A stretch of DNA of 64,000 bases. Origin: Notolepis coatsorum. Taxonomy: Eukaryota > Chordata > Actinopteri > Aulopiformes > Paralepididae. The translations under genes were made by a program, and so were the position numbers. Of the stretch, positions 12,631 to 62,053 are shown in pieces (position 1 is the stretch's first letter; every line of letters starts with the position of its first letter). The notes under the pieces were generated by a model. That model saw only the letters and a list, made by a program, of their open reading frames with translations, did not search any database and was not told the DNA's origin. The DNA lies in NCBI GenBank assembly GCA_963971535.1, contig OZ020593.1:15984148-16048147 (forward strand), written 5' to 3'.

Positions 12631-12679
12631 TGGTAATTAGTGTAATATTAATATAGTGTTATTAATATTGAAATGGCCT

Positions 12680-18600: not shown

Positions 18601-18739
18601 CACCGGTGCCGACGGCAAGGTCCGAGCAGCTGAAGTGCTCGTCCAGGGTCGCACTTACACCCGTCCCGTGGCGAGGCTCATAGAACTGCCTCGACTCCCA
18701 GACACAATCGATGATGACCATGACCCTACAACCCTATGA
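12680..18739 (+). CDS. BEL/Pao Gag-Pol polyprotein, intact
   Basis: A single frame of 2,019 codons. The in-frame ATGATG at 12680 is the first plausible start; the frame is open a few codons further upstream but without ATG. Residues ~1-140 are low-complexity and acidic. About 145-225 form a Glu/Arg/Gln-rich probable coiled coil. A Gag domain follows, then three zinc knuckles at ~618-680 (CPYC..H..C, CFRC..H..C, CTKC..H..H). The A17-type aspartic protease carries LDDGSEKT at ~734. Reverse transcriptase has PFGTTCSP near 1118 and YVDN near 1153. RNase H follows (FSDAS ~1341), then the integrase HHCC finger (~1650-1690), the DDE core (MDCFGP, SDHGTNF, WEREVR; ~1716-1835) and the BEL C-terminal domain. 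There is no stop or frameshift between gag and pol, so Gag and Pol would be made at equal ratio unless another mechanism acts. The second aspartate of the RT YxDD box is Asn here and in copy 1. Confidence 0.95.
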   Translation: MMNTPRNDPPNQRPQRERRLPQYLEAYAVSQQPSLLLTVNAVKLESKSMSNPNAQTTPTIEAPTGSNVTDQVHGGDQWEPDMTSHPASTEEVVPDESREEYNATERELGTEEDGESTVEIELQGSARSTPREGSPIQPPSPSEAERTLQQAFLISLNAAAERDRLQIQQRSEHEQIRLEIRRIQMEENVARERAGAQRDAARDRQQSQLIEQLIRRTTPSPSARGSRNSSRHTSRAASPSRVNNPELDQQTRSIPPTDHLPPPVQARPSNREGAAYPVERLNQRLQALDDLTEDEEEEEENHARRQHSTLPDQEVRYSPGYTPAELRYRPPTLYTGEHDARPAPRNSTWTSGPWYTAGTSPYQGAGGDSPRRPLPQRSPMYPQSASYIGTPMVPDFTQENRAQYTELRMCLETMLVDVLDERHKYAILLKHLKVPRAHNIALAYATSTTPYTAALVALDQRYGRIWDYVIQEIRHIDRLPPAIDNRALDDLSIRVQSLVGMLGAQREKGRHELYANSNVERILEKLPPARQERFRRQRDHRDPNGPEPNLLDLADFLAREVSSLRLDTFGRSTPGSREGTRRLNDGRRSVTVMHQSESVPSSRSHSTPSRTEKWKIVCPYCEKEHWLAQCDSFPKLNAEEASQWIKSNKRCFRCARSHMAAECRLKKRCTKCDGAHLDILHDSNRRRPSPAPSSRKASVMYIDPASSSGARVLLKVVRVTLSYQNKVLDTYAVLDDGSEKTLLLASAAAQLGLRGSETQMTIRTIRRDLKTIKGENVSFSIAASGQPERRYQITDAFTSQEIGLSRYTYPVAKLMEKYAHLRKLPIPLIDNAMPTLLIGSDHADLIVPIDRVHTGPRGCPAAVETRLGWTLQGPLAKSLNRSTATRCLHSRVTEGETALLQHVERLWTLEQMPFKNGKKDIRSKDDIYAIHLLETGTKRVPVNGVLRYATPLLRREGMPTFHAKTDATERYLLNTERRLAKNPAQESVYRAEIEKLITAGHVTKMDIKEADQTTESWYVPHHKVHHNGKDRIVFNCSYQIGSQNLNKELLPGPTLGPSLLGVLLRFRQEKVAISGDIKGMFLQVRLVEADKPLLRFLWREKPGDEHPAIYQWEVLPFGTTCSPCCATFALQKHVAEDPAADEEVRHSVKNSFYVDNCLQSLSTQEEAEALLIKLRASLIKGGFDLRQWASSDPQVLRSLSSEDKAASSETWMATIPGEAQEMTLGLVWRFKTDSLHYRHKPLTTEQGRPAAAPTTRRSVYTTLARQYDPLGCILPYTTRAKMIVRALWDKDQGWDDPIPAHLASTWREWEMELHSLPGVNMRRSYFPPTVRPETCKMDLHVFSDASEVAYGSVAYLRAQDQGGEIYTAFVLARSKIAPRKQQSIPRLELCAALAGAHLATLIQRELTIPVSRTILWSDSTTVLAWIKSDSCKYKVFVGVRVTEIQDLTEELTGETEWRYVDTKQNPADVITRGMPLDDLTRRNVYSDGPAFLRLPEGQWPMPIPREASPEEVENKKSVFCGLSTVASTDPNIDDCTSIESAQQRTFLRYHPECKSPADMSAANYEEAELLLLQRAQRDSFPDELACGGKPVPSDSRLIHLAPESDAHTLIRVGGRLRRAPNLPDDIKYPIVLNSRHKVTELIIKKYDEDVHHAGAERVFAEIRRRYWILQGREAVRRFQRTCLDCRKWRAQPSIPRMADLPPCRLRIGDKPFHSTGMDCFGPLHIKKGRGTEKRWGIVVKCMTTRAIHIELLPTMSTDSFLMAFRRFTSRKGRPSTLLSDHGTNFKGGERELRESFQAMGPELKTHLAPAQVDFQFNPPNAPHFGGTWEREVRSIKTALYAVLGAQTVAEEVLMTVLTEIEGVLNSKPLGYVSSDVADIDPVTPNTLLMGRLDPALPQTMYRPEEANGRRMWRYSQVLADKFWNSFLLHYLPSLQTRQKWVKERDNLTEGTVVMIIDQSLPRAMWPAGRVSKVITGADGKVRAAEVLVQGRTYTRPVARLIELPRLPDTIDDDHDPTTL

Positions 18740-21314: not shown

Positions 21315-21971
21315 TCAGTGCTTGAAGCGCTCGAACATGTGCCCCAGTTGGTCTATGTGATTGGTTAGGATGCGGTGGATGAGATCCACGTAGCGCGCCA
21401 CGTCCCCTTCCCGCGAGAAGTCCCGGCAGAACACGCCCGTCTCGGCGCACAACACGAACTTCTCGGGCATGGGGCCGTTGTCATGCACGTACTCCCAGAC
21501 GGCCAGCAGCAGCAGGCGCACCTCGTAGGGCGCGATGTGGGGGAAGATCTCGTGCACGTTGGCCAGCACCGGCGGCAGCAGCTGGCCCTCGCCCATGCAG
21601 GACACCAGGAGGCAGGAGGCCTGCAGGTCCCAGGGCGAGTCCAGGGCCGAGGCCTCCCGCGAGGCCTCCCAGTGGGCCAGCAGCGTGGCCAGCAGCTCCC
21701 GCAGCAGCGCGGAGCAGCAGCAGAGGGCCGGGCGCCCGGCGGCCACCACCTGCAGCAGCGGGAAGATCAGCTTCGGGTGGTCCTCGAAGCAGCGGCGGAC
21801 GCGGAGGTCGCGCTCCACCGTGGTGCGTGCATGGCTCACCGGCGGCCACGGCAGCTCCCTGTTGGCCACCTCGGGCCAGATGTTCTCCAGCAGCGCCATC
21901 GCCACCACCTGGGCCGCCTCGGAGGTGGTGCTGCAGCACTGGACCATCACGGCCATGAGAGTCTGGACGTT
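21315..21971 (-). CDS. ints5: INTS5 last coding exon (Integrator complex subunit 5 C-terminus)
   Basis: On the minus strand an acceptor CCTCTCAG lies just before AAC GTC CAG, and the frame runs 218 codons to TGA at 21317-21315. It matches the conserved C-terminus of INTS5: a VQCC segment, the WPP..HARTTVERDLR block, PALCCCSALLRELLATLLAHWEASR, SPWDLQASCLL, LPPVLANVHEIF, APYEVRLLLLAVW, the DFSREGD motif and a final IDQLGHMFERF. INTS5 is a helical-repeat scaffold subunit of Integrator, the nuclear complex that cleaves snRNA and paused nascent transcripts. The exon starts in phase 0. GC is high compared with the AT-rich introns. Confidence 0.93.
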   Translation of the reverse strand, partial: NVQTLMAVMVQCCSTTSEAAQVVAMALLENIWPEVANRELPWPPVSHARTTVERDLRVRRCFEDHPKLIFPLLQVVAAGRPALCCCSALLRELLATLLAHWEASREASALDSPWDLQASCLLVSCMGEGQLLPPVLANVHEIFPHIAPYEVRLLLLAVWEYVHDNGPMPEKFVLCAETGVFCRDFSREGDVARYVDLIHRILTNHIDQLGHMFERFKH

Positions 21972-23316: not shown

Positions 23317-24178
23317 TAATCCTCCCCTGGATAACTCCTGCTGGGTGTAATAATGCTCCCCTGGATAACTCCTGCTGGGTGTAATAATCCTCACCTGGAT
23401 AACTCCTGCTGGGTGTAATAATGCTCCCCTGGATAACTCCTGCTGGGTGTAATAATGCTCCCCTGGATAACTCCTGCTGGGTGTAATAATCCTCACCTGG
23501 ATAACTCCTGCTGGGTGTAATAATCCTCACCTGGATAACTCCTGCTGGGTGTAATAATCCTCCCCTGGATAACTCCTGCTGGGTGTAATAATCCTCACCT
23601 GGATAACTCCTGCTGGGTGTAATAATGCTCCCCTGGATAACTCCTGCTGGGTGTAATAATCCTCACCTGGATAACTCCTGCTGGGTGTAATAATCCTCCC
23701 CTGGATAACTCCTGCTGGGTGTAATAATCCTCACCTGGATAACTCCTGCTGGGTGTAATAATGCTCCCCTGGATAACTCCTGCTGGGTGTAATAATCCTC
23801 ACCTGGATAACTCCTGCTGGGTGTAATAATCCTCCCCTGGATAACTCCTGCTGGGTGTAATAATGCTCCCCTGGATAACTCCTGCTGGGTGTAATAATCC
23901 TACCCTGCTGGGTGTAATAATCCTCCCCTGGATAACTCCTGCTGGGTGTAATAATCCTACCCTGCTGGGTGTAATAATCCTCCCCTGGATAACCCCTGCT
24001 GGGTGTAATAATCCTCCCCTGCTGGGTGTAATAATCCTCCCCTGCTGGGTGTAATAATCCTCCCCTGGATAACTCCTGCTGGGTGTAATAATCCTCCCCT
24101 GCTGGGTGTAATAATCCTCCCCTGGATAACTCCTGCTGGGTGTAATAATCCTCCCCTGCTGGGTGTAATAATCCTCAC
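23317..24178. repeat. 34-bp minisatellite abutting the INTS5 splice donor, ~27 units
   Basis: Read on the minus strand, each full unit starts G(T/G)GAGG or GGGAGC, continues ATTATTACACCCAGCAGG and ends AGTTATCCAG. About 27 units are present. Those nearest the exon are often shortened to 22-23 bp by loss of the AGTTATCCAG end. Seven unit junctions read CCAG followed by GTGAGG, the same as the true donor at 24179/24178; the others have GGGAGG or GGGAGC. The 34-bp length shifts the frame each unit, and all three minus-strand frames are free of stops over most of the array. Confidence 0.93.
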
Positions 24179-24976
24179 CTGGGAGTGGGTAACCCCCTCC
24201 TCCATGTCGGCCAGCCGGCCCCCGGGCAGCCGGCCCCCGAACAGGTGGGCGATGCCCTGGTGCAGCGCGCACTCCACCAGCTGCTCCAGCAATATGTTCA
24301 GGCCGATTGAGGAGAAGGCGGCCAGGTGCGACAGCAGCAGCACCGAGCAGCTCACCGCCTCGCTCGCCTGCTGGCTGTCCCCCCCCTTCCCCCGCCGCGG
24401 CAGCGACAGGAAGAAGTGGGCGATGGCCGTGTGGGCGAGCAGCAGGAGGTGCGGGGCGGAGAGGTTGCGCGGCAGCGGGCTGCAGGAGAGGAGGCGGGCG
24501 GCGGCGTGCGACACGGCCGCGTCGTCGTGCATCAGGAGCGGGCAGAAGTCGTGGAGGTGCACCGATACGGCCGCGCCCACCTGCAGCGCCATGGAGGACT
24601 GGGCGCCGCCGGCCCCCTGCTCCTCGTCGCGGCTCTGCACGGCCGCCGCCAGGTTGAGCAGCAGCGTGCGTGGCGCCGTGTTGTACGTTTTGATCTGGGC
24701 CACGATGCGCATTATGGCGTCCGGCACCAGGTCCGGCAGGCTGGCGGACAACAGGGTGTGGAGCTGCCAGGCCAGCGCCAGCTCCTCCGGGTTGCGGGCC
24801 TGCGTCAGCAGCTGGCAGAGGGCCTCCGTGGCCACGCTGAGGCCCCCGTACACCGACAGCAGGCAGAGCAGCTGGTGGAACCAGAGGTGGCACTTCCTCT
24901 CCAGCCGCAGCGTCTTGGCGCACAGCTCCCCCACGTGGCCCTGCAGCTCCTCCAGGAAGGGCACCACATGCTGCGC
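24179..24976 (-). CDS. ints5: INTS5 internal coding exon
   Basis: Bounded on the minus strand by acceptor CTCCTCCCAG before GCG CAG CAT and by donor TCC CAG followed by GTGAGG. It is 798 bp, 266 codons, phase 0 at both ends. The translation carries conserved INTS5 blocks: VPFLEELQGHVGELC, LRLERKCHLWFHQLLCLLSVY, RNPEELALAWQLH, SVHLHDFCPLLMHDD and LLEQLVECALHQGIAHLFGG. It joins in frame to the exon ending at 39093. The exon ends shortly after the LFGG motif, and the next visible exon resumes some tens of residues further along the family, so a segment is missing in between. Long open frames on the other strand and in other frames reflect its high GC. Confidence 0.93.
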
Positions 24977-25390
24977 CTGGGAGGAGGGGTGGGCATCGTT
25001 AGGATCTTATCGACACTACTACTCTTTATCAATACTGCTTAACGGTTCGGTACTTTATCGATACTCTTATCGGTTCTTTTAGATTATTATTATTTAAAAA
25101 AAATATGTATACATTTATTATTTGAACGGCTTAAGGCTATATCTGTACTTGATGTTTGTTTGTTGTGTTGCATATTTGAAATAAACTTCAATCAAATCAA
25201 ATCAAATCCCCCTCTCTTAAAAACAAAAACCTGTGTTTAACCTAGCCATCTATAAAACATCATGCGACATCATGTGAAACAAAATGTCCTACTCCCCTAA
25301 AGAAAGAAATACATAGCAAACATGACTCACGTTATCCAATAGTGCTGCTGCTTTTTATTTTGTTAAAATCTTTTAGTTAATAAGACTAAA
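24977..25390. other. Intron start, no gene; decayed LINE tail
   Basis: 24990-25080 has CGATAC/TATCGGTTC strings typical of a decayed hAT MITE end. 25150-25210 ends CAATCAAATCAAATCAAATC, a repeated 3' tail of a LINE without coding part. AAGACTAAA at 25382-25390 is the left flank of the L1-like insertion. Confidence 0.45.
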
Positions 25391-25972
25391 CGACGGAGAC
25401 TTCCGGTTTGGAGATGTGTGGGTAGTCGACCATTGAAAGAGCTCCCGGTCAAACAACATCGAAAGAATCAAGTAAAACAGTCTAAAACTGTCTAAAACAA
25501 AATAAAAAGTGATAACTCAAAGATATAAGAGAAAAGGAAGGATGACCACGAGAAAGAGCGAGAGAAAGAGGACCCCGGAGGACGTACAAACACGGAGGAA
25601 ATATCTCGACACGAGGAAATGGCGGCAGAGATAACTCAGGCGAGTGTGACTCAGGTAGACAAGAGGCGTGGAGAACGTGGAGCCCGCCTGGGTAGCGAAG
25701 ATACAAGCGACCATGATAGCCAGCGTACAAGAACTACGGGCTGACATACAGGCTAACGCAAAAGCTATCCAAGCTATACAAAATAGCATACAAACCAACA
25801 CGCAGAACATACAAGCTGGCACATTGACTAACCAACAGGCTAACGCGACAGCTAATCAAGAGCTAAAAAATAGCATACAAGCTAACCAGTGTTAATTTTG
25901 GCAGCTATTTTCATTTTAGTTTTAGTCTTAGTCACGTGTCAAGTGCTCCTTTTTCGTTTTTATCATATTTAG

Positions 25973-26675
25973 TAGGGATGCACCGAATGGGAAATTCTTG
26001 GCCGAAACCGATACTGAAAATAGAAAACAGTTGGCCGAAAACCGAAAGCCGAAAGGCCGAAAATGATTCATAGAATAGATTTTTTTTACCAATGTTGTGG
26101 AACATTATGATTATGGAAAAATATATGATTATGGCAAAACTTAACTTAAATAATAAATAATCACTATTATGGGTCCATAAAACATTTATTCAGCACTTCT
26201 GAATGCATACAGTACATTAATTCCATCTTTTCTCTGGCTGCCGCAGCGGACATCTGTGCTTTACTGAGCGCACCTTTCTAGTCCCCAGCTGAATGTGCTC
26301 GCTTGACTTGGCACAGTAGACGCGCGACAGACAGACAGCGTCAATGTGAGAAACACAATCCCCCCCCCCCTCTCGCTCTGAATAATATGCATATTAGATC
26401 ACTCGGTGATTAACCGCGACGGGCATATAGTAAATAAGGATATAAAAGCATGTTAAAGACGTATTTATTGGACGCGTTGCGCGCAGAGTTTACATAGAAA
26501 CAGCGCGACTCCCGACAGCGCGACATCATCACAACAACACGCGTTAGGTTACAGGTTGTTTCTGTTTCTGTGACATATTTTCGGTGAAAAAACTCTTTCG
26601 GCCGAAAGCCGAAAGGCCATCTTTGGCCATTTTCGGCCGAAAGTTTTCGGCCACCGAAATTTCGGTGCATCCCTA
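25973..26675. mobile_element. hAT MITE nested in the hAT element
   Basis: Termini TAGGGATGCACCGA and TCGGTGCATCCCTA, flanked by the 8-bp duplication ATATTTAG at 25965-25972 and 26676-26683. Many GGCCGAAA/TTTCGGCC motifs lie near both ends. 703 bp, no coding capacity. Confidence 0.92.
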
Positions 26676-26949
26676 ATATTTAGTCATCTTCATTTATTTT
26701 TCGTTTAGTCAGTTTTAGTCAACTAAAGGTCTGAGCATTTTAGTCTTAGTCAGTTTTTGTCTCAATTTTGGCTTTTTTGTTTTAGTCTAGATTTTTAGTC
26801 GACGAAAACAGATGACATTTTTGTCTATTTTAGTTAATGGAAAAAAACTTGTCAGAAATAGTCAACATGGAACATTTTCTGATTTAAATTGCGTATTTTT
26901 TTTTTAACCTAGGGGAATCTGAGTCGGCGGCACAAGTGATACACAGGAA

Positions 26950-27345
26950 GTATATATGTTGGTGTAGACATGGTCCAATGTATTGTTGCTCCTACAGTAT
27001 ATGATGGTGTAGACATGGTCCAATGTATTGTTGCTCCTACAGTATATGTTGGTGTAGACATGGTCCAATGTATTGTTGCTCCTACAGTATATGTTGGTGT
27101 AGACATGGTCCAATGTATTGTTGCTCCTACAGTATATATTGGTGTAGACATGGTCCAATGTATTGTTGCTCCTACAGTATATGTTGGTGTAGACATGGTC
27201 CAATGTATTGTTGCTCCTACATTATATGTTGGTGTAGACATGGTCCAATGTATTGTTGCTCCTACATTATATGTTGGTGTAGACATGGTCCAATATATTG
27301 TTGCTCCTACAGTATATGTTGGTGTAGACATGGTCCAATGTATGC
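26950..27345. repeat. 45-bp minisatellite, ~8.5 units
   Basis: Units contain GACATGGTCCAATGTATTG and GCTCCTACAGTATATG with few changes. 45 is a multiple of three, so several frames on both strands are open as 15-residue repeats; nothing suggests translation. Confidence 0.92.
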
Positions 27346-28088
27346 ATCAAAGAGAGCATTACGGATGTGGTGACGTTGTTTCTGACCAGAAAGACAACGT
27401 TGAACTCTGTCTGTCTTCTGTTTGCTGTGTCTTTCCTTTCTCTCTGCCATGTCTGTCCTCTCTCTGCTGTGTCCTTCCTCTCTGTCATGTCTGTCCTCTC
27501 TCTCTCTGCTGTGTCTGGCAGCGGTTTATTCTATAACAGGATACTGTAAACTAAGTAAACAGAACACACAGTAGTACTAGTAGTAGTACACACTGATTGC
27601 AATCTGCTTGCATAAAAACATTATATAAAATCACATTCTGAGGTCAGTGTTAAAGTGCCACATGGAATAGGTCTGGTTAGTGGTTAGAGGTGGTCTAGGT
27701 CTGGTTAGGGTAACTTAGGGGTAGTTAAGCATTCATTATAATTTATTATTATTATTTAGATAGATGGATGTAAAGGGCTAGACCAACTCTTAACCCCTAT
27801 CCGGACCTAGACCACCTCTAAGTCACAACCCTAACTTAGGGGTTCAAGTTAGAGGTGGTCTAGGTCTGGTTAGGGGTTAGAGTTAGAGGTGGTCTAGGTC
27901 TGGTTATACTGATCCGATACCAGTGCATACATAAAAAAAAATTATATTATGTAAATTATAAAACTTTTCTTTCTTTTCTTTTTTTACAGCTACTGTTTTA
28001 TATATACTGTTTTTTTTAGTAATAACTAGAAAGTAATGGTATTTATTCAACAACAGGTGATTGTATAGATTAGTATTAGTATAATTAA

Positions 28089-28629
28089 TAGGGCTGTCAG
28101 TTTATCTCGTTAATTTGATTAATTAATTACACAGCAAATTATTGCGTTATGAAAATTTATTACAAAAAAAAAGAAAAAAAAAGAAAAGTTTTTTTTATCT
28201 CATTCATTCCATAATAATGTAGAATACACATTTACAGATTTTTTTTTTAATATGGTCCAATTTCATGTTCTTGGTGTCAATCTGCGCGGTGATTGATTGA
28301 ATGACATTTTTATTTTGAGTAAATTGTAATGAACCAAATGAGAATATCAATACATTTTTTTTTATCTTTGACTGTGAATAACACCATGCTCAAATTGACC
28401 AGACCTGAAAAATCTAAGCAAATTAATAGATGGAAGATGATTAAACAGAAGGTTTTGTAGATACAGTACTGAATTCTGCCATCCGGACACATGCAATTTG
28501 AAATATGATTATAGAATATAGAATATCAGGCATAAAATGGTTATGCAATTAAAATGCGATTAATTAGATTAATTAATTACAAATCCTGTAATTTATTAGA
28601 TTAATTTTTTTAATCGCCTGACAGCACTA
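28089..28629. mobile_element. hAT MITE nested in the hAT element (second)
   Basis: Termini TAGGGCTGTCAG and CTGACAGCACTA, flanked by ATAATTAA at 28081-28088 and 28630-28637. Subterminal TTAATTAATTAC and GATTAATTAGATTAATTAA repeats. 541 bp, noncoding. Confidence 0.92.
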
Positions 28630-30290
28630 ATAATTAATTCACAACTAAGCTCAATGAGTTCACCCACGGAATGGTTGTTGGTACATTGGTTCCGCACGGA
28701 CGTTACACGTTGTTGCGCACTTCCTATCCAGAAGGCTCCGTTTAGGTTGGCTAGTAGCAGAGGCTCTGTTGTGATTTTTAATGCAAAATAAATATTCAAC
28801 ATTCTCTTTTGAGACTCCGCCTCAGACTCTTATCATTTGGCACTAAAAGCTAAACATTGTCACGGGTATGGCTGTCTGCATTATGTCATTAATTGTGTGC
28901 GAGAGGTCGATCGTTATGTTAGCGTGAGCTAGCTTAGCCACTAGCTAACGCGAGCTAGATGGAAATACAAACAATGTAATGTTAGTGGTGAAAAAGTGAT
29001 TTACCTTGGAATACTCCTTTGCCAACTTGCTGTACTTTGCTTGCAGGTCTGCAGCTGGATTATGAATAGTCCCATCTTTAGCCAAGGTAAGGTTAAGCTA
29101 AAACTAGCTTTTCAAATAGCTCCAGCTAATGCTAATAACATAGCTCCCCGTCACACTGCTCTACTCGGGACGATGGCATTAAGAAAAGTTATAATTATTT
29201 TGTCTCGTCTTGTTTTAGTCAATAATATCAATATACATGAAGAGAAATTTTCATCCTGGTTTTTATAAAATTACATTTTTGTGTCGTCAGTTGTGGTCAA
29301 CGATATTTAATAAACTATTTAGTCTCGTTAGCGTGACATGGTCTTCAATAAAGTGACGTCACGTTGTCGTCATGAAAAAAACCTTCGTTGACGAACATCT
29401 TTCGTCATCAATTTAGTCAACAAAATTAACACTGAAGCTAACGCAATGGCTAACCAGGCGAGCACGCAGAATATCCAAAGCAACATCGATGGATTAAGGG
29501 AAGAGTTGAAGAGGGGACAGGACGAGCTCAGAGGGGAAATGGATAAAGGACTCGAGGCAATGGATGGAAAAATACAGGAACAAGAGAAAGACATAAAGAT
29601 GTTGGAAGAAAGGACGGCTGAAACGGAAGAATAGAATACAGAAATGCATGATATTCTAAAGGCGACGCTCGAACAACAGAACATGTTGAGAGAAAAGTTA
29701 ATGGACTTGGAGGGGAGGTCGAGGAGAAACAACATACGAATATGGGGACAGAAAGAGGGGATGGAAGGAGACTCGATGATCAAATTTGTGGACAGCCTAA
29801 TTCGAAGAGAATTGAAGATGACAGCCCTCGACAAGACAGGGATTCAAAGAGCACACAGGACACTGGCGCCGAAGCCGCGGTTGGACAAGCCACCGAGAGC
29901 AGTTATAGTCAACTTCTTGGAATTCGAGGTCAAGGAGAACATTCTTAGAGCAGCCTGGCAGAAGAGGATGGAGGTGGAGGGAAAGAGTAACCTTCGACCA
30001 TGATTATGCAACAGAGCTACGTTCAGATAGAAAAAACTCTGAAGGAAGGAGGAATCAGATTTCAATCGCCAATGACCACGCTGAAGGTCCATTGGAATGA
30101 AGGCGCAAAGGTGTACAACGACGTGCGGGAGGCGGCGAGGGACATGAACCGGAGAGGATGGAAGGTGCCGGGAGGAGAAGAGAAGGGGCCGACGCTGTTA
30201 CAGAGGCTGGAGAGGGCGAGGAGATGGAACAGGGTCGGCGGGGGACGAGGAGGAGGCGAGGAGAATGGGAAGGTGAAGGGGATCTGAATC

Positions 30291-31057
30291 GATTCAAAGC
30301 AGATCAACTGAGAAGGAGGACGCAAAGACACGGAGAAGGGGGGCAGAGAGGAGACGAGAGGGGACACGGTGATCCAAGGGAGGATAAGTACAATACACGC
30401 ACAATACAGGTTAATGTATACATGAGAAGGACTGATGCAATGAGAAGATGGTAAAGTACATACGAGATAATTAAACCAAAAATTAGAAAGAAGGGCATGG
30501 AGATTCAAGACACATTAGACTGATATACATATGACGCACACAATACAAGAAAGTGAAAACATGAAAAATACTTATGCAGGAGGAAGATGATAAAGCACAT
30601 GCGAGATAATTATACCGAAAGTGATAAAAAAGGACATGTGGATTCAAGAGATATATTGAGACAGACATTAAAGGAACACAGGAGTACACATGTCGCATAA
30701 CACAATTAAACAGGAACATGAAAGTGACTAATACAGAGCTTATGACCAGGAGCTCGGAGGTCGCACACAGAAAGAGTTAGACATATATAGTGCGCTTTTT
30801 TTAGCCACTAGGGGGAGCCCTCTCACTAGGAGAGCCACTACTCCCCACCCACCAGCGGGGGAAGGAGGGGTACGAATGAGACCCTCAACTGCCATGGAAG
30901 TTCCAAGTGTAAATGTGGATGTTAATGTTTATTATGGTTATATGTATGTAAATCAGACGGAGATAGCAGAGGCTACAACCACAAGTATTATTTTATGTGA
31001 CATGGGTAGAACGGGAAAACAATTGGAAAAGAAATTACACAAGTTAAGGGTATAAAA
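30291..31057 (+). other. L1 inter-ORF region
   Basis: This links L1 ORF1 and ORF2. It holds A-rich sequence with repeated TACATACGAGATAATTA-type blocks near 30458 and 30600. No separate gene is seen. Confidence 0.6.
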
Positions 31058-31262
31058 ATGATGTCGTTAAATGTGAATGGTATGAATAATCCGATCAAGA
31101 GGACTAAGGTGATGACGAAACTTAAGAAAGAGGAGGCGCAGGTCATCTTCTTACAAGAAACACATCTAATATCACAAGAACATGAAAAGCTGAAGAGATT
31201 CGGGTATGAAAATCTGTTCTATAGTTCTTTTAAACAGAACCTTAGAAGAGGAGTAGCTCACC

Positions 31263-32262
31263 GGTTCTACATATTATTTTTACGCACAGTTATTGTTATG
31301 TTTGAAGGCTCACGGTGTTCCATTAAGGATACCAATTGTACACCACAGATACCACAAATTCTCAATTACTAACGTCCTCGTATGAAATCCTCCACCTAGA
31401 ATCAGTCTGGAGGAGGGATATACCAGACCTGGAGATAGATTTTGATTGGCAAGAAGCCTGGGCAAATGTTTGACTTGCATCAAGGAACCCGGACCATCAA
31501 CAAATCAATCTTAACTATATTCATAGGACATACTTGACCCCTATAAGACTGAACAGAATGGGTCTTAAACAAGACTCCAAATGCTCCTTATGTACAAATG
31601 GGGACATTTATTGTACTGGGACTGGGACATGTACTGGGACTGCCCACCAGTTAAGATATTCTGGAAAGAAGTGACCCAGCAATTATCAAATCTCTTAACT
31701 CTGAATATACCTGTACACCCCTCTGTATTACTGCTGAATGATGTTTTTGAGTGTGCAGTACCCATACAGCTAAAGAGATTGGCTTTATCTGGTATCACAG
31801 TGGCTAAAAAGCTGATAGCATCACGATGGTTTCAACCGGAAAAAATGTGCCGGAAGGTCTGGATTCTTACATATCTCGATGTGATTTATCTAGAAATATC
31901 TACAGCAAGAATTTTGGGTCTCAATGAATCCAAAATGACAATGTGGTTAGAAGTGGTGGAGAGAATAAAAACTAGCATATAATGGTAATGCCTGGTTAGG
32001 AGCGAATGATAATGGGTGGAATTTCCAATGGGAGGTCCGGGGGGGGGGGGGGGGGGGGGGGGGGGGTAGCGAGCAGGAGCATATGTATGTAGGGTATTAG
32101 ATAGCAGGTGTTAGGTGTATATCTTGTATAAGACATTTATCTAAATGGTGATTTCATTGGATGTGCACTGTTAATTAATGCTTGTATATCTAATTTTATG
32201 TTGTCATGTTTGTTTATGTGTTTGTTTAAAAAAAGAGTACAAAAAAAAAAGTACAAAAAAAA
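31263..32262 (+). mobile_element. Second L1-like fragment inserted in L1 ORF2
   Basis: A 5'-truncated L1 3' end: a broken GLKQDSKCSLCTNG-type zinc knuckle, FWKEV near 31660, QLKRLALSGITVAKK and an open frame to 31981, then a 3' UTR with a 25-bp G run at 32040 and an A-rich tail (AAAAAAAAAAGAG). GAGTAGCT occurs at the left junction (near 31251) and after the tail (near 32264), as expected of target-primed insertion. Confidence 0.8.
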
Positions 32263-32491
32263 AAGAGTAGCTATACTAATTAAGAACACAGTGAAGTTTG
32301 AAATGATCAGGGAAATAAGGTATAAAGAGGGGAGGTATGTAATGGTCAAGGGGAAAATAGAAGGTCAAATGGTAACACTAGTGAATGTATATGCTCCTCC
32401 ACCAGACAGTGAGAAATATCTATTTGAAACGATCTTTGATATCATAGCGTTGGAAGGGGAGGGGGTCCTGATCTGTACAGGTGATTTCAAT

Positions 32492-32562
32492 GTAATAATA
32501 ATAATAATAATACATCTATTTTATATAGCGCTTTTCCAGGTGCTCAAAGACGCTTACTGAAC
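32492..32562 (+). repeat. Short repeat tail inserted in L1 endonuclease
   Basis: An (AAT)n run with ATTTTATATAGCGCTTTTCC and GTGCTCAAAGACGCTTAC splits the endonuclease frame after GDFNV. This string is a familiar fish repeat tail; a similar AATGCGCTTTATAA block is at 48070. Confidence 0.6.
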
Positions 32563-32822
32563 TATGACATAGACACGACAAGCACAAAGAAATGGAGGAC
32601 AAACATTAGCAAATATATGAATATACAAATGGCAGAATTAGGAATCATGGACATATGGAGAGCAATGCACACACTAGATAGAGTACACACATTATTCACA
32701 TCCACACACAACATATTCAAGGATAGACTATTTTCTCATGACAACAGGGGACAGATACAGGGTAGAAGAATGCAGGATAGGGGTGACATATCAGACCACA
32801 GCGCAATATATCTGACAGTGAA

Positions 32823-33777
32823 TGTTGTAAATTCCCCATTATTTGTTATGCTGTGTATTGTTATTTCCAGTCAGGCACTTCTTTGATGGCCCAGGGGTCC
32901 TATTATTTATAGTCTGGCATCTCTCTGGACAGCCCAGGGGTCCTAATGGGTTTAAATACAGCGGCCATCTTGCCGCCCATGTGTTCCATTGCTGTCTGCT
33001 TTCCCAGTGAGAGAGTGCGTTCATGAACTAAGTAAGTCAACAATAGCCTACAAATATAGTGCCTATGGTAATGATAGATACATGTCATATGTAGCCTGCC
33101 TTATGTGTTGAGATGCTGTGACATGCATGTGTGACTATGATTTGGTTTGCTACGTTGTGTTAATTCATGCTGCTAATTGAGCTATGCTAATGCCAATAAT
33201 GCTATAGCATCTCTTCAGTTGTGTCTGGATGCCATTGCATTCTGCCATTTACTTGTTATGTTTGGTCCATGCGGCCGATGCTAATATGCTAGATAGCATC
33301 TTTTCAGTTGTGTGCATTATGTTTGGTCCATGCGGCCAATGCTAATATGCTAGATGGCATCTTTTCAGTTGTGTGCATTCTGCCGATTACTTGTTATGTT
33401 TGGTCCATGCGGCCGATGCTAATATGCTAGATAGCATCTTTTCAGTTGTGTGCATTATGTTTGGCCCATGCGGCCAATGCTAATATGCTAGATAGCATCT
33501 TTTGCTGTGTGTGTTCAGGTTATGATTAATAAGTATGTACCTCTGTTAATTATTGTGTTCTGCTTATATGTTGCAGAATACCACTCACTCAATCTTTGAT
33601 TGCTCCATCCAGCCCTACGACCTGGATGGAAGCACTCTTGAGATATCACTCAACAGAATCCTTAATAAAATATGAAAGGACTGTTCTCTGTGTCTGCGTC
33701 CGCTCTCTGACCGGGGTGTGCCGTTCTGGATGAAGTGGCTCCAGCAAACCTTGCAAACAAACATTATATCTTCAATA
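32823..33777 (+). repeat. Probable solo LTR in L1 ORF2
   Basis: GTGAA occurs at 32818-32822 and 33778-33782. Removing the 955 bp between them with one GTGAA copy rejoins the L1 frame (LTVN to LKSRW). The segment starts TGTTG and ends CAATA, has AATAAA near 33663, and contains ~4 imperfect tandem units of about 85 bp (GTCCATGCGGCC, AATATGCTAGATAGCATC) at 33260-33500. The TG-start, 5-bp duplication and poly(A) signal suggest a solo LTR of unknown family, with no internal region. Confidence 0.6.
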
Positions 33778-34894
33778 GTGAATCTTAAAAGTAGATGGAG
33801 AAATACAGTTTGGAGACTGAATGTAGGATTATTAAATAACAAAGGTTTGGTTAATAAAGTAAAGGAAGACATAATTAGACACAGAAGAAAATGATAACGG
33901 AGAGGTAGACTCAAACATTTTATGGGATGCACTAAAGGTAGTAATACGGGTAAAATTGATAGCAAAGACGGCATTACTCAAGAGGGCTAGAATAGAGACA
34001 TACCAGAACTTGATAAAGAAACTGAAAGAATTAGAGAAAGAACACCAAAGCTCAAAGAACCAAAAGACACTTAGGGAGGTAAAGGAAGTTAGAGGAAAGA
34101 TAAACAAAGAGCTGCTGACAGAAATAGAGAAGAAAGCTAGATACATGAAGCAGACATACTATGAAGGGGGACCGAGAGCGACCAGACCTTTAGCTAGACG
34201 AATCAGGACACAACAAAAACTGAACACAATACACAAAATAAGGGACACGAACACAAACAAAATACTGAGAGAACCAGTTGAAATAGAGAAGACATTTGAA
34301 GAATATTATAAGAAACTATACACACAACCGATAGCGGCAGGAGAAGAGGAGAGAGAATTATTTTGAAAAATTTGATCTACCATCGATAGGGAAGGAACAG
34401 AACAAAATATTAAATGCAGAGATCACAGAACAGGAAGTATGGAATGCGATCAGTAAAGCAAAGAGTAGTAAGTCACCGGGTAGCGACGGGTTCCCCTCGG
34501 AATTCTACAAAACATTTAGACAGGAACTGAGCCCCATATTAGAAGCAGCATTCAGACACACAATGGAAAAAGGCACAATGCCACCTTCATGGAAAAAGGC
34601 CATAATTACTACAATTCCAAAAGAAGTGAAAGATAGAGAACTGTGTAGCAGTTTCAGACCTGTGTCCAATCCATATACATTAATAATATCCAAAAGATTT
34701 GAGACATTTATGACAGATATAATAGACAAAGACCAGACCGGATTCATTAAAGGAAGACAGACACAGGATAACATAAGGAAGACAGTGCAGGTGGTAGATG
34801 AGATACAAAAGGAAACAGGAAGTGCAGTATTATTAGTTAACCTAGAGATGCAGAAAAAGCTTTCGACAGTGTAAGCTGGATATTTCTATATAAA

Positions 34895-35768
34895 CAGGGC
34901 TGTACAGTGCGATGATATCGTCGCGAATTGCCCCTTTAATTGGCCGTTGCGATTGGTAAATATTATCTGGGGGCGGGCTTGCGAGTAGTGCTTTCAAGCC
35001 TTGGATTCGCATTTCACTCCTAAATTATCCAAGGCGTGTGATGACGCGATGACGTCACTCACGCGAGCTGAGCAGTGAGCACTCAGCAGGTATGATCAGC
35101 GAGCTGCGGCGTCTGCTCCTCCTCCAGCCCTCTCGCACCCGTGGCTGTTGTAAACACTGGGACCTCGGTGAGCCTGCCAGCCGGCTAGCTACTGATAGCT
35201 ATCAACAAATGCTCCAGTAAGTCTAGTAGTGCATGATAGCTTGCGTTAGCTTACTGTTCAAAACGAAACGTCCCATTAAACTAAATAGTTCAGATAGCTC
35301 CGTCCTGATATCAATGTCTTATAACACTGAGTCGATGCGTATTCGAGCTGAGGGCACGCTGAATATAGTCAATAGGGACCAGCTGCAGCGCCGGAGAATC
35401 CTGGCCGTAGCTGGAGGCTACAGTATAGGGCCCAGCTGCAGCTCCGGAGAATCCTGGCCGTAGCTGGAGGCTACTCAGTACACACAGACAGTGGAGCTGG
35501 TTGCATATAGCGAGCATTTAGACTTGTTGCGTGGTGGCGATGTCTCGCAGATAATACAACTACAAGTATGATTATATAATATATATATTTTATAAAAAAA
35601 AAAAATTATATAAAATAAATTTTTTATTTTTTTTAATCAAAAACAATTGATATAAATAATGGTAAAATTGTTATTTAAAAATGTGCCCCTAAAAAATATT
35701 TTTTGCCCATAAATTTCTCATTTAGGGGCAAGTGTGCCCCTAGTGAAAAAGCTTAGCGTACAGCCCTG
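34895..35768. mobile_element. hAT-like element in L1 reverse transcriptase
   Basis: Termini CAGGGCTGTAC and GTACAGCCCTG are inverted repeats. ATAAA is shared by both flanks, and the L1 frame (FLYKVLEKF) rejoins when the element is removed. The expected 8-bp duplication is not perfect, so assignment to hAT rests on the termini. A 50-bp segment with CCGGAGAATCCTGGCCG is duplicated at 35375-35475. Noncoding. Confidence 0.7.
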
Positions 35769-36403
35769 ATAAAGTATTGGAAAAATTTGGATTAGACAAA
35801 AACTCTATGAAAACAATTAGGGCATTATATCAAGAACCGACGGCTAGGATTAAGGTAAATGGTAGTTTGACGGACCGGATTAAACTAGAGAGAGCTACCA
35901 GACAGGGTTGTTGTCTTTCGCCGACGCTCTTCGATGTATTCATCGAACCACTGGCTCAACTAATTAGACAGACCAAAGACATCAAAGGGGTGGAGATAAG
36001 GGGAACAGAACATAAATTGGGACTGTTCGCAGATGACGTGATAGTGTATGAGGCAACCAGACACAAGCTTTCCGACACTGATGGATTTACTGACAGAATA
36101 TGGATACTACTCAGGATATAGACTCAACGTGACGAAGATACAGACTTTAGCACTGAACTACACGCCAACGATAGAGATCAAAGAAAAATACAAAATTAAA
36201 TGGGACATGGACAGGATCAAGTACCTAGGGGTGAACATTACAAGAGGGATGGAGGGGTTATACGATGTAAACTATACAGAGATCAATCAGAAAATTAAGA
36301 GAGACCTAGAAAGATGGACAGTAATGCCCCTAGATTTCAGCTCAAGGATCGAAATCATTAAGATGAACATATTACCAAGGTTACTATACCTATTTCAGTC
36401 TCT

Positions 36404-37570
36404 ACTAGGGGTGCACCGATATATCGGTTGGGTATCGGCCGATAAGTGCCTTGTTGACTGCCATCGGCCTGTTGGCCGATAAGCTCAAATTTGCCGATGG
36501 CAGTGGCCGATAAATATCCCTCAATTTGTGTCACGTGAATCTGGTCCACACGTTAAAAACTTTGAAAAAAGTTTTAGTCAAGCAACCTGCACAACGCCGC
36601 CCCCACACACACACGCTACTGCATCAAAGTTACTTATGATTAACAAAGGCATTCGTTTTGTGGCATTAACGTTATATAGTTACATGTTCAACAACATCAG
36701 CATATTATTTACCCGACCAGATAGCATTGTTGGTCATTCATATTTCAGTTCCTTCCTTTGCTCAGAGAGCCCGTACTGAATTGTACCCATTCTGCAATCT
36801 GTTAATAAAGTTTTCAATCAGACAAATGTATAGAAAAGCTTTTATTATAACATTCGTTGCAGTAAAATCATTATGCCTCGTTTGGTCATCCTGCGGAGCG
36901 CTGGTAGCCTACTCGTGGCCGGCGAGGAGCTAAAGTTATTAGCTCCGCTAGGTTTGTTGTTGATCTCATGTAAATCAATGGCGGACTTCCCGGAAGTAAA
37001 AAACGAATAAGCGCTTGCAGATTGGTGGTAAGAACAGCAGAGGCGGGTGTAAGCGGTGTGACGTAATTGGCAGAATCGACTGTCAATCAAAATGGTGCTT
37101 TGGTTGAGAGAGAGATAGTGCTCTCTTATTAAAACTCATAAACAAGTCTTGAGCAAGACAAGTTAGTCTGTTAGGTTAAATTTGTAACACAAAAAGAGAG
37201 ACGTGTAGCCTATTTATTTATTTAATATTTTATTTATTCATTTTATTATTATTATTTTATTTGTTGTCATGCCTAAAATAATAGTCAAGCATAGGGCTAA
37301 AACATTTTCATAAACAATAATATAATTTTTTGTTATATGGTTATAATAAAAGCTTTTCTATACATATGTCTGATTGATTGAAAACTTTATTAACAGATTG
37401 CAGAATGGGTACAATACAGTACAGCTCAGTGGACTGGAGGATGAAGACCAGAAAAAGACTTTTGGCTTTTTTACATAAGGGTCCTCCATTTTCAATTCAT
37501 CAAAACATTTAGAGACATACAAATATACAGTAGTTTCATATAAAAAAATAAAAATATTATATACAATAGT
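36404..37570. mobile_element. Composite insertion in L1 ORF2: MITE end plus foldback flanked by LINE-A tails
   Basis: The left part (36404-36540) is a hAT MITE end (GGGGTGCACCGATATATC with ATCGGCC motifs). Then come a LINE-A tail in plus orientation (36773-36818), a foldback MITE 36819-37372 (termini CAGACAAATGTATAGAAAAG and the matching inverted end), and a LINE-A tail in minus orientation (37373-37500). The right edge of the whole insertion is not exact. No coding capacity. Confidence 0.6.
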
Positions 37571-38815
37571 AAAGAAATACAAGCTAGAAAAATAATCCAA
37601 GATACTGAGATGGATAACACACAACAACAAATTCAAACCAGGGATAGACGACCATGGGTTCAAAAGATGGGAACGGGGGGGGGGGGATAACAGCAATATG
37701 TACAATGATAGAAGGAGGGGAGATGCAGACTCTACAAAAATTTAAAGAAAGATTCGGACTAGAGAATAGAGACCACTTTAGATATTTACAGATTAGAGAC
37801 TACTATAACAAGGAAATAAAGCAAGACAGAGACAAAGAACAGAATGGGGTAATTAAGATAATGGTAAAATCATACGAAGGAAGGGAAGGGTTATATCAGC
37901 ACTATATCAGGCAATAATGGACAGTAAGGGAAATACAACATTGTATATAAAAGAAAAGTGGGAGAAAGAGTTAGAAATAGAGATAACAGAGGAGGAATGG
38001 TATAACACATGTAAGACACAACAATCAACCACAGGATCAAGGATATGGAGGGAGTTTGGGTGGAAAAACATAATTAGATTCTTTATAACACCAGAAATAC
38101 AGGGCAATTACACACCAGCAAAGAGACTATGTTGGAGGGAGTGTGGACAAGAAATAGCGAACCACACATATTCTGGAGATGTCAGAAAATAAGGCACTAC
38201 TGGGAAGAGATAGGAGAGATAATAAATGAAATAATAGGATACGAAATACCCCAGGCAGGCCAAGTGTTGTATCTGAGGAGCCTATCACAGGAAGGAATAG
38301 TGGCAGCCAAAAAAGCTTTAACTAAACTGTGGTACAGGGTAGAAGCGCTGACGAAGGACCAATGGATAGAGATAGTAGAGGGGATACAGGAAATTGAGAG
38401 AATCACACATCTGCTGAGGCTGCAAGAAGAGAAGTTTGAATTGAAATGGGAAAAGTGGGAAGAATATAGGAGGGGAAGGAACGACATCACAGGGGATTGA
38501 AAAGGATACAAGGAAATGATGAAAAATGTAAATAAAGGATGCAAATATAGAATGGACCGAAGGACCCATGCCACACTGTTTTTTTTTTTTTTCTTGTTGA
38601 TAAGTCTTTATAATTTTGTATGTGGAAATGTATTGTCTATGTATGTTGTTGAAAAAATGAAAATAAAAACTTAAGTTAACATTTTTCCCCCCTAAAGACT
38701 AAAAGACTACAATATGACTACAACGATTTCATGATGGCTTCCTGTCCTCGCGTTTCCGGTTTCACGTTACATTATCAACAACAGATTGCTGCTAATTAAA
38801 CACTTCATGGAAACG

Positions 38816-39001
38816 GAGTAATGTTAACGTTATGTCGAGTTCATACGCGTAGTGTAGTATGAACTCGACATAACGCTAACGTTACTCCGTGTCCAGTGTT
38901 GCTGCCACCGTTGCGTCGCAGACGGACGGTACTACATAACGCTAACGTTACTCCGTGTCCAGTGTTGCTGCCACCGTTGCGTCGCAGACGGACGGTACTC
39001 C
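38816..39001. repeat. Near-perfect 33-bp-arm palindrome and a 65-bp direct repeat
   Basis: CGGAGTAATGTTAACGTTA... at 38816 pairs with ...TAACGCTAACGTTACTCCG ending near 38890, around a ~9-nt loop. The right arm then continues into a ~65-bp unit (TCCGTGTCCAGTGTTGCTG, GCAGACGGACGGTACT) that is present twice, at 38868-38932 and 38933-39000. It lies ~100 bp inside the intron from the INTS5 donor at 39093. Confidence 0.8.
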
Positions 39002-39092
39002 GTTAGCTCCGTAGCTAATCCGCTCCTAGACTACCGATAGCCGTAACCGATAACCGGTTTAGTACCGGGTTGTTTCGGGGGGGCATCCCTAC

Positions 39093-40094
39093 CTGGGAGG
39101 AGGTGTGGTGGGGGGTGCTCTCCCCGTCCGAGCGGCTGTACACCAGCTGGTGGAGGTGCAGCAGCAGCGTCTGCAGCAGGCGGTCGCAGGCCTGGCGCAC
39201 GCCCTCGTGGGGGGAGGAGGGCGCGGGGCCCGAGGTGATGACGGACGCAGGCGTGGCCGTGTCGGCCAGGAAGCAGAGGACCCGGGCACCGCCCGCCGGG
39301 CTCTGGCTGATGAGGTGCACGGCCAGGCCCAGCATGTTGTCCAGCTCGTCCTGGGACAGGCCCTGCAGCGATGCCTGCAGCAGGAGGAGCGCGGGCGGCT
39401 GCAGGAGCTCCACCAGCTTCGCCGACACGTCGCCCAGCAGGGCGGGGGACAGCGCCGCCAGCTGGAGGAGGAAGGGCACGGCGGCCTGACGCAGCTGGGG
39501 GGAGTTCTCCCAGGAGGACGAGGAGGAGGAGGAGAGGGAGGGGGACAGCGGCCCGGCGGGGGGGCTCAGGCTCTTCTGGAACATGCACAGCAGCTCCCGG
39601 CGGATGCTGTCCGAGTGGTGCGCCAACAGGTGGCCCAGGATGCCGACCACCGAGCCGATCTTCGGCATGCGGCTGCCCGCGTCCGTGCCCCCCCCGCCCT
39701 CCTTGGAGCCGTGCGTGTGGAAGTCCTTCAGGCCGCACGCCAGCACGAGGCTGATGATGGTGTCCGGGAAGGCGGAGCCGATGTGCGCCACCACCCAGTC
39801 GAAGTGGGGCGCGTGGCGCACGGAGGTGTCCAGCAGGTCGTCCACGCAGGCGTCGGGGCATGAGGCCAGCATGGCCGCTAGGCACTGGGAGTAGACCTCC
39901 ATGAGGGAGCGCGTGGCGGCGCAGGACATCCACAGGTCCAGCAGCTCGTTGAGGCTGGAGGAGTGGGGCGCGATGCGGCGGCTGGCGTGCTTGCTGCTCA
40001 GCTGGCCCAGCAGGTCCACGGCCCAGGCGGACAACAGGGGGGCCCAGGGGCGTGGCTTGAAGGCGATGAACTCCAAGAGCACCCTGTGCACCTC
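39093..40094 (-). CDS. ints5: INTS5 large internal coding exon
   Basis: Bounded on the minus strand by acceptor TTCCGCAG before GAG GTG CAC, after a (GT)n run, and by donor TCC CAG followed by GTAGGG. 1,002 bp, 334 codons, phase 0 on both sides. Conserved INTS5 strings: [124 protein letters not shown] and TPASVIT. An acidic/Ser-rich linker with a run of serines interrupts the helical repeats at about residue 190 of the exon. This is the core of the subunit. Frame and splice sites agree with the neighbouring exons. Confidence 0.95.
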
Positions 40095-61814: not shown

Positions 61815-62045
61815 CTGGATGATGTTCTCCAGGTTGGAGACCGCGGCGCTGGCGTCCCCCTCCATCTCCAGGTGGTGCAGGAAGGCGTTGACGTGCTCGT
61901 CGTAGACGCCGGCCAGGTGCTCCAGCACAGCGGTGCGGTAGACCGGCACGGAGCGCAGGAGGCGCACGGCACAGCGGGCATGCTCCCGCACGCTGAGCTT
62001 ACGGCCCTGGGCGTCCACGCCACTGTTGAACGACTTGATGTCGTC
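61815..62045 (-). CDS. ints5: INTS5 N-terminal coding exon
   Basis: Donor ATC CAG followed by GTGGGA at 61815; acceptor CGCCCAG before GAC GAC ATC at 62045. This gives 77 codons in phase 0, consistent with the other exons. An alternative acceptor CTCTCCAG lies 7 nt upstream but would break the frame. Translation: IKSFNSGVDAQGRKLSVREHA followed by RCAVRLLRS, AVLEHLAGVYDEHVNAFLHHLE and LENIIQ, which corresponds to the conserved N-terminal helical segment of INTS5 (the LSxREHARC motif). It joins in frame to EVHRVLLEF at 40094. Confidence 0.9.
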
Positions 62046-62053
62046 CTGGGCGC

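What the first reader, a model, noticed from the sequence alone, without database searches (positions are those of the whole stretch)
23317..24180. Minisatellite grown from a splice donor: about eight copies of the INTS5 5' splice site in tandem
The exon ends CCCAG and the intron starts GTGAGGATTATTACACCC. That intron start is itself the first unit of a ~27-copy 34-bp array. Seven further unit junctions recreate CCAG followed by GTGAGG, matching the U1 snRNA consensus as well as the true donor; the other units carry GGGAGG/GGGAGC and so lack GT. The gene thus has an array of potential competing donors, with point changes dividing units into donor-competent and donor-dead. Known: tandem donors can give alternative splicing. 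Inference: the array may produce isoforms or be under selection against GT.
Basis: partly seen in the sequence, partly recalled or inferred. Interest (0 to 1): 0.75.

Follow-up and report, generated by a model that had tools for sequence, protein, structure and literature searches.

The report
Minisatellite grown from a splice donor
A fish gene carries a tandem repeat that began as a copy of its own exon-intron border, so it holds many strong but probably silent splice sites; such repeats have been seen in amphioxus and in two human genes, but this fish seems to have them at many genes.

Summary
On the minus strand, INTS5-like exon 3 ends CCCAG at 24179 and the intron opens with 27 full units plus a partial one: 8 CAG|GTGAGG (including the real donor), 11 GGGAGG, 6 GGGAGC, 2 GGTAGG; lengths mix 34 and 23 bp.

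The window gene is not the main INTS5. It is one of four amplified, fast-evolving copies lacking about 60 conserved codons before the array. The conserved INTS5 lies on contig C43, where an array starts at the ancestral donor and each unit copies the last 12 exon bases exactly. That exon end is shared with other fish, so the array grew from the donor. C43 exon 2 has a second such array.

The class is known: amphioxus 'mirages', human ABCA7 and IFI6. Flank sampling found the same at ATP1A, AMPK-gamma, ICA1-like and myosin-I-like exons. CAGGTGAG arrays were about 11 times denser than a reversed-letter control; CAGGTAAG arrays were no denser than that control.

In the window only the first donor leaves an intact frame; the other seven give premature stops. 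I favour tolerated, mostly unused donors. No RNA was available. Selection against GT is not supported.

The parts
61815..62052 (-). INTS5-like exon e1 (238 nt; earliest coding part found in the window)
   Evidence: tblastn with fish INTS5; exon borders and sequence
39093..40094 (-). INTS5-like exon e2 (1002 nt, open)
24977..39092 (-). intron 2 (14,116 bp), absent from P0006, whose single frame covers e2 and e3 and runs into intron 3; exon-end 11-mer CCTCCTCCCAG repeated at its acceptor
24179..24976 (-). INTS5-like exon e3 (798 nt, open); lacks about 60 codons present in the C43 gene and other fish just before the donor
24177..24178 (-). GT of the exon-proximal donor CAG|GTGAGG
23317..24178 (-). 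donor-bearing minisatellite, 27 full units (34 bp or 23 bp) plus a partial one; 8 GTGAGG, 11 GGGAGG, 6 GGGAGC, 2 GGTAGG
23389..23802 (-). span holding the seven further CAG|GTGAGG donors (first intron bases 23802, 23734, 23666, 23598, 23530, 23496, 23394)
21315..21971 (-). INTS5-like exon e4 (657 nt including stop); begins where the spliced fish proteins resume (..Q|NxQ..)

Best explanation
This is an exon-intron-boundary minisatellite ('mirage'). In an ancestor, the junction at the end of INTS5 exon 3 (last ~12 exon bases plus first ~22 intron bases) was duplicated in tandem, and the copies multiplied by slippage or unequal exchange. Every copy lies downstream of the real exon end, so it is intronic and tolerated. 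The array then travelled with the gene when a copy moved to C27, lost about 60 codons so that the coding sequence now ends at an array-type exon tail, and was amplified to four copies, where array length kept changing. Splicing most likely uses the exon-proximal donor; use of a downstream unit would mostly give a premature stop and decay of the message. Shown: structure, polarity, four-copy variation, reading-frame consequences. Inferred: duplication mechanism, direction of the move to C27, donor choice, decay.
For: C43 array starts at the conserved donor and units copy the exon's last 12 nt exactly, 20 nt with up to 2 mismatches. In 44 of 50 INTS5 proteins held the preceding motif was found; 37 of these run from the same ..Q tail on into V.. 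as an unspliced donor would read, so the tail predates the array (many are near-identical and not independent species). Array lengths differ between copies: 33, 27, 27 and 28 units. C43 exon 2 has its own 37-bp array with a 22-nt exact exon-tail copy. Same build elsewhere: AMPK-gamma 27 nt, ATP1A 12 and 17 nt, ICA1-like 32 nt, tetraspanin-like 33 nt, myosin-I-like 23 nt, JIP-like 29 nt of exact exon-tail copy. In the window only the first donor leaves an open frame into e4; the other seven give a stop more than 50 nt before the junction.
Against: No RNA data, so donor choice is unobserved. In the window copy the exon tail matches the unit for only 3-4 nt exactly. Single-base frame breaks in C43 e1 and e4 leave open whether that copy is intact or badly assembled. 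CAGGTAAG arrays are about ten times rarer than CAGGTGAG arrays, so donor identity alone does not explain where arrays form. The read-through check in other fish is at protein level (17 of 37 tails reach 34 residues; none has a repeated 6-mer) and would not reveal every array.
Confidence: 0.8

Rival explanations
1. The array works as a bank of alternative donors: several units are used at real frequency, giving isoforms or tuning INTS5 output through unproductive splicing, as reported for human IFI6 and ABCA7.
For: All eight GTGAGG donors have equal predicted U1 pairing, -11.6 kcal/mol. In ABCA7 retention of one VNTR unit is reported (not changing with VNTR length), and exon 19 skipping rises with VNTR length (PMC5954066 passages). 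In IFI6 two downstream repeat units serve as donors (PMC4526556 passage).
Against: In the window units 2-13 lack GTGAGG and the first downstream GTGAGG is 376 nt away; all seven give premature stops. In amphioxus, Adh3 and globin mirages are said not to interfere with regular splicing (PMC3087553 passage).
Confidence: 0.25
2. Selection removed GT from exon-proximal units, making the pattern of live and dead donors adaptive.
For: After the real donor, 12 consecutive units lack GTGAGG in the window, 14 in copy A and 13 in copy D.
Against: The four copies are recent duplicates, not independent. Dead units largely coincide with the block that alternates 34 and 23 bp (units 1-11 of the window), so homogenisation explains them. 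The conserved C43 gene kept GTGAGG in 7 of 8 and 10 of 10 units.
Confidence: 0.1
3. Arrays form anywhere in this repeat-rich genome (14% of 125 kb of held sequence is masked as tandem repeat) and those spanning exon ends are merely survivors; donors play no part in starting them.
For: CAGGTAAG arrays are no denser than the GAGTGGAC control, 0.051 against 0.047 per Mb. A 61-bp array also spans the stop codon of C43 e4. The shorter word CAGGTG is itself twice as common as its reverse in held sequence (80 against 41).
Against: CAGGTGAG arrays are about 11 times denser than the reversed-letter control although the full words are about equally common, 3 against 4, and 14 against 15 for 7-mers (small counts). 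CAGGTAAG still exceeds its own reversed control 4.2-fold by raw count.
Confidence: 0.45

Closest known systems
Amphioxus 'mirages' (Adh3, globins BflGb6 and BflGb9, TnC, PGBD5)
   Same: Minisatellite-like tandem duplications spanning an exon-intron boundary; many but not all globin units carry AG/GT; length varies between haplotypes; proposed as a source of new introns (PMC3087553 and PMC3902484, passages).
   Different: Here a fish, at INTS5 and several other genes; I looked for such arrays only at 5' splice sites, whereas amphioxus has both kinds; no transcript data here.
Human ABCA7 intron 18 VNTR
   Same: 25-bp repeat directly at exon 18 whose first two bases are the exon's donor; retention of one unit is seen in transcripts (PMC5954066, passages).
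   Different: Described as starting at the intron's first bases; in C43 INTS5 the unit includes exon bases. ABCA7 has RNA evidence and human length variation.
Human IFI6 (G1P3, 6-16) minisatellite
   Same: Title of Turri et al. [quoted passage not shown] use of two downstream units from a passage of PMC4526556; the paper itself is not held).
   Different: Shorter unit and interferon-induced transcript (unit length recalled); donor use shown there, not here.
Intron gain by tandem duplication of AGGT-containing exon sequence
   Same: Copies of an exon end provide new splice sites; seen as search listing and abstract starts only (e.g. PMC4974935). Human segmental-duplication genes with repeats at exon-intron borders: PMC2812944, passages.
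   Different: The e3 array does not itself make a new intron; intron 2 of this gene may be such a gain but that is not proven.

Membership tests
Mirage (exon-intron boundary minisatellite) | Tandem unit includes both exon tail and intron start | tested here: met
   C43 e3: 12 nt exact exon tail; C43 e2: 22 nt. The window copy alone is inconclusive (3-4 nt exact).
Mirage (exon-intron boundary minisatellite) | Many but not all units carry AG/GT splice signals | tested here: met
   8 of 27 GTGAGG in the window; in C43 7 of 8 in the first array and 10 of 10 in the second
Mirage (exon-intron boundary minisatellite) | Array length unstable | tested here: met
   33/27/27/28 units in four paralogous copies; no individuals compared
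Mirage (exon-intron boundary minisatellite) | Regular splicing undisturbed | not testable with these tools
   No RNA reads available
Donor-providing VNTR (IFI6, ABCA7 type) | Array begins at the exon's true donor | tested here: met
Donor-providing VNTR (IFI6, ABCA7 type) | Downstream units used as donors in transcripts | not testable with these tools
   No RNA reads available; only frame consequences computed
INTS5 (Integrator subunit 5) | Sequence match to INTS5 | tested here: met
   PDB Integrator subunit 5 chains E 7e-108; Pfam INTS5_C exons on C27 and C43
INTS5 (Integrator subunit 5) | Conserved segment ..SLLDINCRFGTTVNFSGSVWSVFHAGVIGKGLK.. present | tested here: not met
   Absent from the window copy between e3 and e4, present in C43 and other fish

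The most novel reading that the evidence does not exclude
This fish makes splice-donor minisatellites at the scale of the genome: hundreds or more coding exons end in arrays of their own 5' splice site, so its spliceosome must routinely pick the first of many near-identical donors, and such arrays relocate exon ends and seed introns in amplified gene copies.
Probability: 0.45. Interest if true: 0.8.

Novelty: new member of a known kind. Interest (0 to 1): 0.57.

Why it matters
How the spliceosome picks one donor among identical neighbours is a long-standing question. A vertebrate with natural arrays of several to many near-identical donors at known exon ends, in several genes and in paralogs with different unit numbers, makes it directly testable with ordinary RNA-seq. 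If common, the arrays also offer a concrete route by which exon ends move and introns are gained, and an annotation trap for gene predictors.

Tried and rejected
Chance similarity: rejected, since 8 of the 12 strongest U1-matching GT sites of the window lie in one array. Array as an inserted stray satellite: rejected, because C43 units copy the exon tail. The missing exon segment as a separate small exon in intron 3: none seen among open frames of 22 or more residues or tblastn hits. Window gene as the only INTS5: rejected by the C43 copy. A transposon with terminal repeats as the source of intron 2: a self-comparison found no terminal repeat. Species naming: not achieved. Never answered: a looser genome-wide search for the array unit, the exon-first survey with myosin-head exons PF00063, and a further non-donor control CAGATGAG.

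Rows dropped or merged: neighbouring rows with one unit were merged into one array (e.g. C1 8.684-8.688 Mb, 114.299-114.301 Mb, 170.354-170.357 Mb). The two ATP1A arrays (L041, L054), 73 kb apart, are counted as two arrays but one gene family. Control flanks L046, L051 and L052 hold 676, 654 and 200 masked bases. Only 10 control open frames, from four of the five control arrays, were given to Pfam and none to the PDB, whereas AMPK-gamma and ATP1A were recognised only through the PDB search, so the control is less searching than the test. In one search exon 4 was taken three bases too early, which does not change the frame. In one search copy A exon 3 was cut too long; one search corrected it.

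Full report
OBSERVATION. The minus-strand gene is INTS5-like (PDB Integrator subunit 5 chains, E 7e-108). In the window its exons lie at 62052-61815, 40094-39093, 24976-24179 and 21971-21315. Exon 3 ends CCCACTCCCAG at 24179. From 24178 downward run 27 full units anchored on ATTATTACACCCAGCAG and a partial one: 8 begin GTGAGG, 11 GGGAGG, 6 GGGAGC and 2 GGTAGG; 6 units are 23 bp, 20 are 34 bp and the last runs into the partial unit. U1 duplex energy is -11.6 kcal/mol for all eight GTGAGG sites; 12 of 7,561 GT sites on both strands of the window reach that value (U1 sequence recalled).

THE WINDOW GENE IS A DERIVED COPY. A genome search with the first unit's 18 bases gave 32 exact hits in four places on contig C27. 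Copies A, B (window) and C are about 146 kb apart and D is inverted. Best-matching pieces of the fetched stretches are mostly 97-100% identical to the window, some lower (92-96%), and parts of copy C were not matched. Arrays have 33, 27, 27 and 28 units. The exons found in all four copies are open with lengths in multiples of three, apart from e1 (238 nt); e1 of copy C was not found in the fetched stretch. Changes among the copies are mostly amino-acid changing: 12-39 nonsynonymous against 2-5 synonymous codons over e2-e4 in the six pairs. Pfam INTS5_C found another gene, on C43. At 397 positions invariant in six other fish proteins (e2 and e3), 30-37 changes are private to a C27 copy and 5-6 private to C43, with 23-24 differing in both. 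C43 is therefore the more conserved gene, although its e1 and e4 read with single-base frame breaks at homopolymers, which may be assembly errors or decay.

ORIGIN. C43 exon 3 keeps about 60 codons that the C27 copies lack (..TPDLGASLLDINCRFGTTVNFSGSVWSVFHAGVIGKGLK..) and ends ..GVIQ at the ancestral donor. An array of 8 junctions starts exactly there; 7 are GTGAGG. A second array of 10 junctions, all GTGAGG, lies 3.6 kb further into intron 3. Each unit of the first array compared carries the last 12 exon bases exactly, and 20 with up to 2 mismatches. Among 50 INTS5 proteins held, 44 have the preceding motif and 37 of these run on from ..Q into V.. as an unspliced donor would read; 17 of the 37 tails reach 34 residues and none has a repeated 6-mer, though the check is protein-level and many entries are near-identical. 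The exon tail is thus older than the array: the repeat grew from the donor. In the C27 family the coding sequence now ends at a tail resembling a unit (GAGATTACCCAG in A, GGGGTTACCCACTCCCAG in B-D), so a deletion placed the exon end at the array edge; whether the original donor or a unit's donor survived cannot be told.

OTHER CASES. C43 exon 2 has its own 37-bp array, 3.4 copies, with a 22-nt exact exon-tail copy, and a 61-bp array spans the C43 stop codon. Genome-wide, three CAGGTGAG in tandem gave 27,697 overlapping matches against 3,158 for the letters reversed. Counted as separate arrays in the listed first rows: 10 in the first 18.6 Mb of C1 against 5 in 106.4 Mb for the control, about 11-fold by density. 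In 125 kb of held, repeat-masked sequence the words are about equally common (3 against 4; 7-mers 14 against 15), but the 6-mer CAGGTG is twice as common as its reverse (80 against 41). Flanks of all 10 arrays were fetched. Five lie at recognised coding exon ends: AMPK-gamma (E 4.2e-10), ATP1A twice (E 1.5e-16 and 6.1e-17; one gene family), ICA1-like (Arfaptin E 4.6e-42; gene name recalled) and tetraspanin-like (below the Pfam cut-off; no PDB match). Two more look coding but are unidentified (L043, L044), and three show no recognised exon (L038, L039, L053). For the five control arrays, 10 open frames from four of them gave three weak Pfam matches, all below cut-off; they were not run against the PDB, and some flanks are masked. 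CAGGTAAG gave 4,604 against 1,084 for its reversed control but only 10 arrays in 194.6 Mb, a density like that of the GAGTGGAC control. Flanks of its 10: one myosin-I-like exon (Myosin_head E 3.6e-17; 23-nt tail copy), one JIP-like by eye (29-nt tail copy; no database match), 8 without a recognised exon. So the effect is strong for CAGGTGAG and weak for CAGGTAAG, which speaks against donor function alone as the driver.

MECHANISM. Tandem copies of an exon-intron border lie downstream of the true donor and are removed with the intron, so selection sees them little. In the window only the first donor leaves an open frame into e4; all seven others give a stop more than 50 nt before the junction. 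In C43, of 16 downstream GTGAGG donors in the two arrays, 2 (+37, +71) shift the frame and 14 meet a stop 24 codons into the array. I infer first-donor use with leaky, decayed products. The dead units near the exon largely sit in the block alternating 34 and 23 bp, and the four copies are not independent, so I do not read them as selection against GT.

COMPARISON. Amphioxus 'mirages' are tandem repeats spanning exon-intron borders, reported in Adh3, globins, TnC and PGBD5, with regular splicing said to be undisturbed (PMC3087553 and PMC3902484, passages). Human ABCA7 has a 25-bp VNTR whose first two bases are the exon 18 donor, with one-unit retention seen (PMC5954066, passages); IFI6 uses downstream repeat units as donors (PMC4526556, passage; original not held). 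The listings showed no title reporting donor arrays in a fish; of the fish papers listed I saw passages of PMC2688266 and PMC3045353 (intron repeats and polymorphism in seabream myostatin-2, no donor array in the passages) and did not open the others, such as PMC3151243. Those searches cover open-licence papers only.

Noticed in passing
G000:C27 about 15.86-16.43 Mb, including window 1-64000: A segment with the INTS5-like gene is present four times (three at ~146 kb spacing, one inverted), with mosaic identity (a 10 kb stretch of copy A is 100% identical to the window, another about 98%), and amino-acid-changing differences outnumber silent ones.
   Followed up: partly
window 24977-39092: Intron 2 interrupts what is one open frame in P0006; the exon-end 11-mer CCTCCTCCCAG recurs at the acceptor, and in C43 the exon 2 donor is itself in a 37-bp array: possible intron gain by border duplication.
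   Followed up: partly
L037 2993-3227 (C43): A 61-bp repeat, 3.9 copies, spans the end of the INTS5 coding sequence including the stop codon.
   Followed up: no
L036 5001-5340 (C43): A 29-bp array of 11.9 copies ends about 48 bases before the exon 3 acceptor; the window shows only one related stretch there.
   Followed up: no
C43 e1 and e4 (L035, L037): Single-base frame breaks at homopolymers in the otherwise conserved INTS5 gene; assembly error or decay not decided.
   Followed up: no
window 12641-18739: A 2,032-codon open frame on the + strand resembling a retrotransposon polyprotein (BEL/Pao by recall, not tested).
   Followed up: no
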